In this document: one piece after another, positions 32,610 through 35,055 of the stretch | Layout: each line of letters begins with the position of its first letter | Position numbering within the stretch: the stretch's first letter is position 1 | Source of the DNA: Pedobacter sp. BMA | Lineage (GTDB): Bacteria > Bacteroidota > Bacteroidia > Sphingobacteriales > Sphingobacteriaceae | NCBI RefSeq assembly: GCF_001027745.1 | Contig: NZ_LECU01000008.1 | Location: forward strand, 124,001 to 188,000 | DNA length: 64,000 nt | Direction: 5' to 3' | Translations under genes and position numbers: made by a program | Notes under the pieces: model-generated | Seen by the model: only the letters and a program-made list of their open reading frames with translations | What the model was told of the DNA's origin: nothing | Database searches by the model: none

Positions 32610-32617
32610 CACACGTT

Positions 32618-32690
32618 AAAAGTGGATTGATTTGCTATCCCGAATCATCGGGACCGGATTGCAACCACTTAAAAAAATTGCTAATACCTC
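32618..32690 (+). ncRNA. SAM-II riboswitch upstream of metK
   Basis: The closing stem is AAGTGG (32620-32625) / CCACTT (32665-32670). The conserved blocks come in the expected order: TGATTTG (32628-32634), ATTGCAA (32658-32664), an A-rich linker and GCTAA (32680-32684). These match the SAM-II (SAM_alpha) H-type pseudoknot class. A small extra hairpin, TCCCGA (32638-32643) / TCGGGA (32648-32653), fills the loop where family members vary. The position about 80 bp before metK and just after the promoter fits feedback repression of SAM synthesis. Binding is not shown by sequence alone. Confidence 0.85.
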
Positions 32691-32771
32691 CTTTCAACCC
32701 GTTTACTACCTGTTTAAATAAGGGGTTTGGCAATTACAATAATTTTATTAATCACTAATAATATATAATAA

Positions 32772-34022
32772 ATGTCGTATTTATTTACATCAGAATCTGT
32801 TTCTGAGGGGCACCCAGATAAAATAGCCGATCAAATTTCGGATGCATTAATTGATAACTTTTTAGCATTCGACCCTGAATCGAAGGTGGCATGCGAAACC
32901 TTGGTTACAACTGGTCAGGTTATTTTAGCAGGTGAAGTGAAATCTAAAACTTATCTTGACGTTCAGCAAATTGCACGTGATGTAATTAAAAAAATTGGCT
33001 ACACCAAAAGCGAGTATATGTTCGAGGCAAATTCTTGCGGCATTTTATCTGCTATTCATGAGCAATCGCAAGATATCAATCAGGGAGTAGACAGAAGCAG
33101 CAAAGAAGAGCAAGGTGCAGGTGACCAGGGTATGATGTTTGGTTACGCCACCAATGAAACCGAAGACTACATGCCATTGGCTTTAGACCTTTCACATAAA
33201 TTATTACAGGAACTTGCTGTTTTAAGACGCGAGGACGACGAAATTAAATACTTACGCCCGGATGCAAAAAGCCAGGTGACTTTAGAATACGATAACGATA
33301 ACAAACCTGTTCGCATCGATGCAATCGTAATCTCTACACAGCACGATGATTTTGATGAGGAAGCAACAATGCTTGCTAAAATCAAATCAGATTTAGTAAA
33401 TATCTTAATTCCGAGAATTATTAAAAACAATCCGCAGTATGCGCATTTGTTTAACGATAAAATCCAGTACCACATCAACCCTACCGGAAAATTTGTAATT
33501 GGTGGCCCACACGGCGATACCGGTTTAACAGGTAGAAAAATTATTGTTGATACTTACGGCGGAAAAGGTGCACACGGTGGCGGGGCTTTCTCAGGTAAAG
33601 ACCCTAGTAAAGTAGACAGAAGTGCAGCTTATGCCACCCGTCACATTGCAAAAAACTTAGTTGCAGCCGGTGTTGCTGAAGAAATTCTTGTTCAGGTATC
33701 TTACGCAATTGGTGTTGCAAAACCAATGGGTATCTATATCAATACCTACGGAACAGGAAAAGTTGGTAAAACTGATGGTGAAATTGCAAAGATTGTAGAA
33801 TCTGTTTTTGATATGCGTCCGTATTTTATTGAGCAACGCTTAAAACTCAGAAATCCGATTTATAGCGAAACTGCTGCTTATGGTCACATGGGCCGTACAC
33901 CAGAAACCGTTAACAAAACCTTCAGAACCCCTAACGGAGAAGAAAAAACCGTAACGGTAGAACTTTTTACCTGGGAGAAATTAGATTATGTAGATCAGGT
34001 TAAAACTGCTTTCAGCATTTAA
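32772..34022 (+). CDS. metK: S-adenosylmethionine synthase
   Basis: A 416-residue cytosolic enzyme making S-adenosylmethionine from methionine and ATP. The N-terminal [19 protein letters not shown] (residues 6-24), the signature [13 protein letters not shown] near 116-128 and the glycine-rich loop [18 protein letters not shown] near 270-287 are intact. It is a single-gene unit under a SAM-II riboswitch, with a strong terminator behind it. It supplies the cofactor used by RsmE in this window. Confidence 0.98.
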
Positions 34023-34096: not shown

Positions 34097-34240
34097 TTAG
34101 CACAAATTATATTTCAACTCCTGATGCCTACCCTGTTCGATCACCGTCCCCTTTTCAATCACAATAATTTTATCAGCATGACTCATTTCCGTAGTGTTCA
34201 TTTCTTGAACGTTAAGGTTTTTTAAACCTAAACTTTTCAT
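34097..34240 (-). pseudogene. Chimeric remnant: double-glycine-type peptide leader joined to ABC exporter C-terminus
   Basis: A 47-codon ORF, ATG at 34240 to TAA at 34097. Residues 1-19, MKSLGLKNLNVQEMNTTEM, have the look of the leader of Bacteroidota double-glycine (bacteriocin/RiPP-like) precursor peptides, typically K-L-x-x-L-x-V-Q-E-M/L-x-x-x-E-M, but no Gly-Gly cleavage site follows. Residues 20-47 begin SHADKIIVIEKGTVIEQG and continue RHQELK, which is the H-loop and D-loop-distal end of an ABC exporter ATPase, with its natural stop. The simplest reading is a deletion that fused a precursor gene to the end of its own exporter gene, removing everything between. The remaining ORF is probably inactive, but it is open and could be translated. 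Confidence 0.65.
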
Positions 34241-34533
34241 AATAGGAATTTTGTGATTTTTTAGGTTCTCACTCTGTTGGTGGGCTTTTCAAGTTTGGCC
34301 CACGCTTGGCCAGGCATTAAAACGAATGTAACCATATCCGTGATAGATTTGTAGTATTAAACATATCCATATGCTTCAATCGAATTAGAAAAGAAAATAA
34401 AAACAGCTTAAAATAACTGCCGGGGCGTATTTTCTCGAAATTAACAAGTCGGGGAAATTGTATTCAAGTTATTCATTGAAATTTCAGCGTTTGTTATTCT
34501 TTTTATTCGCATCAAAAAACCATTCAACACCTG
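34241..34533. other. Non-coding gap with weak hairpin, upstream of the chimeric ORF
   Basis: About 290 bp without a recognisable gene. A stem GTGGGC / GCCCAC lies near 34280-34302. No Bacteroidota promoter with good spacing was found for the chimeric ORF. The stretch is probably further residue of the lost peptide-export locus plus the 3' flank of the orphan exbD. Confidence 0.5.
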
Positions 34534-35055
34534 TTACAGCGCTTTTTCCTTTAAAAATGCTTCCTCCTGCGGCTGAAGATTTTTATCATCAATCGTATAA
34601 GATTTAATGTTGTTAATCTTCATCTCATCAACTAAGTCCACAAAATCTTTAAATACCGAATGTTTAGTCGGCTTGATGATCACAATCAGATGTTTCGAGG
34701 CCTGGATACTGGCAACAAGAGTTTTATACTTCCTAATCTCCTGGTCAATTTCCCCAACCGCGCTAATTTTCATATTAGCCGTAGCTGGCAAACCAATGTA
34801 TGATACCGCACGGTTATTTTTACCAAGCAAAATGGTCATCGTCCTTGATTCGGGATAAGGTTCATTACAGTCATCGCAATCCACAGGCTTGGCCACGTCT
34901 GCAGCATTTAATTGCCCTAATGTAGTCGTGAGCATGAAAAATGTAGTAAGAAGAAACATCAAATCCACCATTGCTGTCAGGTCTACACGGGGAGATGATT
35001 TTTTTGTTCTCCCTTTAACGGCCTTGCCGCCTTGAGATTCATTTAAATTTGCCAT
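34534..35055 (-). CDS. Orphan ExbD/TolR family protein with CDDC insert
   Basis: A 173-residue ExbD-like protein from the ATG at 35055 (MANLNES). The upstream in-frame TTG at 35085 would add ten non-conserved residues. The helix VDLTAMVDLMFLLTTFFMLTT keeps the membrane aspartate. The periplasmic part shares MTILLGKNNRAVSYIG with the second exbD of the tonB operon. A short Cys pair, DCDDCNE, near residue 60 is absent from that paralogue. No exbB or tonB is adjacent, so it must borrow an ExbB or be idle. It starts 45 bp beyond the sodC terminator. Confidence 0.85.
   Translation of the reverse strand: MANLNESQGGKAVKGRTKKSSPRVDLTAMVDLMFLLTTFFMLTTTLGQLNAADVAKPVDCDDCNEPYPESRTMTILLGKNNRAVSYIGLPATANMKISAVGEIDQEIRKYKTLVASIQASKHLIVIIKPTKHSVFKDFVDLVDEMKINNIKSYTIDDKNLQPQEEAFLKEKAL

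What the first reader, a model, noticed from the sequence alone, without database searches (positions are those of the whole stretch)
34097..34240. In-frame fusion of a double-glycine peptide leader with the tail of an ABC exporter
The 47-codon minus-strand ORF begins MKSLGLKNLNVQEMNTTEM, the style of Bacteroidota secreted-peptide (bacteriocin/RiPP-like) leaders. It continues directly into SHADKIIVIEKGTVIEQG, the end of an exporter ATPase, with its stop. Seen: both halves in one frame and no Gly-Gly site. Known: such precursors sit next to peptidase-containing ABC exporters. Inferred: a deletion joined precursor to exporter and erased the locus. It marks a peptide system that relatives may still carry between metK and the orphan exbD.
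Basis: partly seen in the sequence, partly recalled or inferred. Interest (0 to 1): 0.65.

Follow-up and report, generated by a model that had tools for sequence, protein, structure and literature searches.

The report
Deletion scar of a peptide-export cassette
A 47-codon reading frame between metK and exbD is what remains after one deletion of about 3.4 kb removed nearly all of a secreted-peptide cassette, leaving the start of the peptide gene joined in frame to the end of its exporter gene; sister species still carry the intact cassette in exactly that place.

Summary
The 47-codon ORF (34097-34240, minus) is exactly as described. In 16 of 45 compared congeners (Pedobacter species such as P. 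zeae and P. soli) the same exbD-metK interval holds an intact cassette: a 68-residue double-glycine peptide precursor, an HlyD adaptor (about 393 aa) and a C39-peptidase ABC exporter (703 aa). Residues 1-19 of the window ORF match the precursor leader (15-17 of 19, by row). The last 26 residues match the exporter's C-terminus (17-20 of 26). About 120 nt upstream also align. Joining the two ends removes 3,401-3,406 nt: the Gly-Gly site, mature peptide, HlyD, peptidase, membrane and nucleotide-binding parts. No other of the 146 genus genomes searched carries the fusion. The same locus has decayed in other ways in sister species, so it is loss-prone. The window's genome keeps two other complete C39-exporter loci. 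I read the ORF as a relic with no function of its own. Several intact copies also carry a DUF805b RNA element (Rfam) just upstream of the peptide start; the window keeps only a degenerate version. This is a verified decay event of a known kind of system, of modest interest.

The parts
34184..34240 (-). Remnant of the GG-peptide precursor gene: start codon and leader codons 1-19 (MKSLGLKNLNVQEMNTTEM)
   Evidence: Codon-by-codon alignment with 18 precursor genes in congeners; 2-4 nonsynonymous codon differences per row
34178..34183 (-). Deletion junction (codons 20-21, AGT CAT); about 3.40 kb missing relative to intact relatives; at most 1 nt of overlap between the parental sequences as seen today
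   Evidence: Comparison with leader (ATG TCN CAA) and exporter (AAY AAT GCY GAT) ends; spans of 3401-3406 nt
34097..34177 (-). Remnant of the C39-ABC exporter gene: last 26 codons (ADKIIVIEKGTVIEQGRHQELKYNLC) and stop codon
   Evidence: 59% identity over 32 aa to exporter residues 672-703 in syntenic loci
34241..34364 (-). Retained upstream noncoding region of the precursor gene
   Evidence: 71-75% identity over about 180 nt (including the leader) to seven intact loci; alignment
34280..34303 (-). 6-bp hairpin (GUGGGC/GCCCAC) where intact relatives carry a DUF805b RNA element; degenerate here
   Evidence: Fold z-score -2.0; aligned; no RF02914 match in the window at E up to 10, though several intact loci pass the Rfam threshold
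34461..34510 (-). Second short conserved noncoding block just downstream of exbD
   Evidence: 75-82% identity over about 50 nt to six of the seven loci compared
34534..35055 (-). Flanking exbD (ExbD/TolR family), present in genomes with and without the cassette
   Evidence: PF02472, 49 bits; synteny
32772..34022 (+). Flanking metK (other side of the scar)
   Evidence: 93-97% identical in the syntenic loci

Best explanation
The ancestor of this strain carried, between exbD and metK, a cassette that made, processed and exported a small peptide: a GG-leader precursor, an HlyD adaptor and a C39-peptidase ABC exporter. One deletion of about 3.4 kb with essentially no homology at its ends ran from leader codon 20-21 to about exporter codon 677. 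It fused the first 19-20 leader codons in frame to the last 26 exporter codons. Shown: both parents exist intact and in order at the syntenic site of 16 congeners, and the window keeps the outer ends and upstream DNA. Inferred: the deletion was a single event, the in-frame join is a 1-in-3 accident, and the 47-residue product has no function. It lacks the Gly-Gly site, the mature peptide, the peptidase, the membrane domain and all ATPase motifs.
For: Synteny and both end matches in five congeners, extended to 16 intact plus 2 frameshifted of 45 congeners. Codon-level alignment of both ends and 3401-3406 nt between them in 18 loci. Upstream noncoding DNA retained. The window row falls beside the clade that holds the intact loci. 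No ortholog elsewhere in the window's genome: the best exporter is a 64% paralog at C7, and the only precursor match is the scar itself. Other decay states at the same site in sister species. The intact exporter has C39, ABC membrane and ABC ATPase domains and passes TIGR01193.
Against: Third codon positions hold 17-22 of 28-33 differences, so most divergence built up under coding constraint. That fits a deletion recent relative to the species split, but also a chimera kept by selection. Codon 20 (AGT against TCN in all 18) needs at least two changes, so the exact breakpoint is uncertain. The fusion is known from a single assembly.
Confidence: 0.93

Rival explanations
1. The fusion is a functional microprotein, for example a leader without a cleavage site that occupies the C39 peptidase of the paralogous exporter elsewhere in the genome.
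For: Start, stop, frame, upstream region and a hairpin are retained; third-position excess; a 64% paralogous exporter with its own HlyD and GG precursor is present at C7.
Against: Found in one genome only; Glu5, invariant in all 18 precursors, is changed; the tail retains no exporter motif; the paralog's own leader (MKLQELNLNEMKEINGGG) is not closely similar.
Confidence: 0.04
2. The fusion is an assembly error and the strain still has the intact cassette.
For: A single assembly was available and reads could not be inspected.
Against: No repeat at the junction to cause a collapse; no other match to the precursor in the genome and no orthologous exporter; genome rated 100% complete.
Confidence: 0.02
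3. The two halves are unrelated: a chance leader-like start plus a fragment of some other ABC ATPase.
For: ABC C-termini are common (many weaker matches).
Against: Both halves have their best full-cassette match at the same syntenic site in the same genomes, with conserved upstream DNA.
Confidence: 0.01

Closest known systems
C39-peptidase (PCAT) export cassettes for double-glycine peptides; TIGR01193 exporters with TIGR01847-type leaders
   Same: The intact relatives have the precursor, adaptor and peptidase-exporter of such a cassette; the exporter and leader models pass their curated cut-offs.
   Different: The window keeps only fragments of the first and last genes. The precursor core (no Cys, net charge 0, 43 residues if cut after the second Gly) matches no named bacteriocin family above cut-off.
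Bacteroidetocins (PMC6671954)
   Same: Bacteroidota peptides with a GG-processed leader and a peptidase-containing ABC transporter; mature size about 42 residues.
   Different: Bacteroidetocins have at least two cysteines and loci with a five-TM protein and usually a thiol oxidoreductase; here there is no Cys and the third gene is HlyD.
Disrupted blpA exporters of Streptococcus pneumoniae (PMC12150690 and the Son 2011 paper it cites)
   Same: A GG-peptide exporter lost repeatedly within a lineage while a second exporter remains in the genome.
   Different: There the losses are frameshifts in the exporter and the peptide genes persist; here peptide and exporter are removed together.

Membership tests
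GG-peptide/C39-ABC export cassette (as the ancestral state) | Exporter with C39 peptidase, ABC membrane and ABC ATPase domains at the syntenic site | tested here: met
   L023 exporter: PF03412, PF00664, PF00005 and TIGR01193 above cut-off. Met by the relatives, absent from the window.
GG-peptide/C39-ABC export cassette (as the ancestral state) | Precursor with a double-glycine leader | tested here: met
   TIGR01847 17.0 bits against cut-off 15.7; Gly24-Gly25-Gly26 invariant in the eight aligned variants.
GG-peptide/C39-ABC export cassette (window ORF itself) | Gly-Gly cleavage site and working exporter | tested here: not met
   No GG in the 47 residues; only the last 26 exporter codons remain.
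Bacteriocin class IIc (PF10439) | Score at or above the Pfam gathering cut-off | tested here: not met
   Intact precursor 19.1 bits against 27.1.
TIGR04149 rSAM-modified RiPP precursor | Score at or above the curated cut-off | tested here: not met
   12.6 bits against 25.
Bacteroidetocin | At least two cysteines, plus a TM protein and usually a thiol oxidoreductase in the locus | tested here: not met
   No Cys in any of the 18 precursors; the locus holds HlyD instead. Features from PMC6671954.
Bacteriocin (by activity) | Mature peptide inhibits other bacteria | not testable with these tools
   Needs synthesis or expression and an assay.
DUF805b RNA (RF02914) | Rfam gathering score 35.6 | tested here: not met
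   Window: no match at E up to 10. Several intact relatives: 39-45 bits.

The most novel reading that the evidence does not exclude
The in-frame chimera is still expressed and acts as an uncleavable leader decoy on the paralogous C39 exporter, i.e. a deletion produced a peptide-export inhibitor.
Probability: 0.03. Interest if true: 0.6.

Novelty: new member of a known kind. Interest (0 to 1): 0.3.

Why it matters
It shows that a 47-codon scar can identify, from sequence alone, a lost peptide-secretion locus that relatives still carry. It also points to an uncharacterised, well conserved GG-peptide cassette in Pedobacter, with related peptides in Mucilaginibacter, that is repeatedly lost. The fusion itself is ordinary gene decay.

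Tried and rejected
Looked for an intact second copy in the window's genome: none orthologous. Looked for the fusion in relatives: none in 146 genus genomes. Considered assembly collapse: no repeat at the junction. Considered RiPP modification: no modifying enzyme seen among the cassette genes, TIGR04149 below cut-off. Supposed at first that DUF805b RNA marks GG-peptide genes only; of 29 elements examined most lie 19-34 nt before starts of varied genes, many with apparent signal peptides, and only about three are clear GG peptides, so the exclusive link was dropped. My GG regex overcounts (8 flagged, several are signal peptides). Literature searches for Pedobacter GG bacteriocins, for DUF805/DUF805b and for leader-exporter fusions gave nothing on point in the library searched.

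Full report
What is there. The ORF 34097-34240 (minus) reads MKSLGLKNLNVQEMNTTEMSHADKIIVIEKGTVIEQGRHQELKYNLC. It lies between metK (32772-34022, plus) and an exbD-like gene (34534-35055, minus).

A six-frame search of 59 genomes, 35 of them congeners besides the window's own, found five congeners in which residues 15-46 match the C-terminus of an open frame of 705-713 codons at 59% identity, and residues 1-24 match the start of a small gene about 3.4 kb upstream on the same strand at 71-74%. Those five loci are syntenic with the window: sodC, exbD, small gene, HlyD (385-393 aa as listed), C39-ABC exporter (703 aa), metK, lipid kinase. The small gene encodes MKSLELKNLGVKEMNTTEMSQVEGGGIINNTLNELLTSLAGTLNAVGADTSAFLSKTVTNVLKLVWSL. 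Its leader passes TIGR01847, and the exporter passes TIGR01193 and carries PF03412, PF00664 and PF00005.

Distribution. I fetched the metK neighbourhood of 45 congeners. Sixteen have the complete cassette, two have it with a frameshift in the exporter, one keeps a broken exporter fragment with stops, and seven (gaps of 189-805 nt) have no cassette gene but keep noncoding DNA that in intact loci follows the exporter. Others have only 52-120 nt between exbD and metK and show no trace. Two further loci without a cassette have larger gaps without trace (262 and 520 nt). Five loci could not be scored because exbD was not found, at least two of them (L036, L066) short because the contig ends. On a metK plus kinase tree all intact, frameshifted and fragment loci lie in one group of 28; the window pairs with a no-trace genome (L035) and this pair is sister to the group, on a branch with moderate support (91/74). 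The simplest history is one gain at this site and repeated loss; the tree cannot by itself tell gain from loss. I count at least four separate losses. The two frameshifts (L032, L033) are single-base changes, one in a G run, and could be sequencing errors.

The junction. The first 19 codons align with the leader of all 18 precursor genes and the last 26 with the exporter end. The intervening DNA in relatives is 3,401-3,406 nt. The window codons at the join are ATG AGT CAT GCT GAT; leaders read ATG TCN CAA and exporters AAY AAT GCY GAT. At most one base of overlap is visible, so the deletion looks like illegitimate joining. Codon 20 differs from every leader at two or more positions, so the break may be up to a codon away. 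Upstream, 34184-34364 aligns at 71-75% with seven intact loci. The dispersed-repeat DNA that follows the exporter in relatives is missing here.

Is the fusion kept by selection? Differences between the window and intact loci are concentrated at third positions (17-22 of 28-33; binomial P 0.0001-0.005, rows not independent). In the tail, 6-9 of 26 codons differ nonsynonymously against 2-5 between intact species pairs, at about 1.4 times the distance. Most divergence therefore predates the deletion or was slow after it. Glu5, invariant in 18 precursors, is Gly here. With a single genome, a young relic and a selected chimera cannot be separated by sequence. I favour the relic because every functional part is gone and other decay states occur at the same site.

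What the intact system probably does (inference). The precursor would be cut in the Gly24-Gly26 stretch by the C39 domain and the core exported through the ABC-HlyD channel; an outer-membrane partner was not looked for. The core (43 residues if cut after the second Gly) has no Cys and net charge zero, and 50 of the 68 precursor columns are invariant across eight variants. No immunity gene was recognised among the genes seen at the locus. A bacteriocin or a signal are both possible. Named carriers include P. ginsenosidimutans, P. zeae, P. psychrodurus, P. jeongneungensis, P. miscanthi, P. soli and P. ghigonis; weaker relatives occur in Mucilaginibacter, and several related genomes hold closely spaced precursor copies.

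The window's genome is not without such systems. It keeps a C39 exporter at C7 (64% identical) with HlyD and a GG precursor, and another at C6 with HlyD and GG-leader peptides.

A side result. Several intact precursors carry Rfam DUF805b (RF02914) 24 nt (L023) to about 30 nt upstream of the start codon. The family is frequent in the genus (54 of 60 genomes, up to 21 copies) and also precedes the window genome's own C7 precursor. In 29 sampled loci nearly all elements lie 19-34 nt before the start of small, often apparently secreted, or peptidase-like proteins. The scar retains a hairpin in that place, but not a recognisable DUF805b.

Limits. One assembly, no reads, no strains of the same species, no expression data.

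Noticed in passing
L023:4948-4983 and 29 loci among L121-L150; own genome G000:C7:255965-255999: DUF805b RNA (RF02914) sits at a nearly fixed distance (mostly 19-34 nt) before start codons of varied, often apparently secreted small proteins, peptidase-like proteins and some GG peptides in Pedobacter, up to 21 copies per genome: looks like a 5'UTR element of a secreted-product regulon.
   Followed up: partly
Intergenic DNA after the exporter in intact loci and at the same place in cassette-less relatives, e.g. L044 and L041 between exbD and metK: Dispersed repeat-like sequences with many copies in G061 and G009 but none detected in the window's genome.
   Followed up: partly
window 32616-32694 (+): SAM-II riboswitch upstream of metK, 53.4 bits.
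   Followed up: no
G000:C6:338000-354000 (L072): Second C39 exporter locus in the window's genome with HlyD, a membrane protein with a C39-like N-terminus, and GG-leader peptides (e.g. MRNRTEISKSEMKNILGGAAKPDCSVEATC...).
   Followed up: no
L055:3568-4456, L057:3624-3718, L044:3879-3952: Flavo-1 RNA copies near the exbD/cassette region, three in a row in L055.
   Followed up: no
G396, G380, G414, G458 (same family, genus code g37): Closely spaced sets of up to eight relatives of this precursor in one genome, unlike the single copy at the metK site.
   Followed up: no
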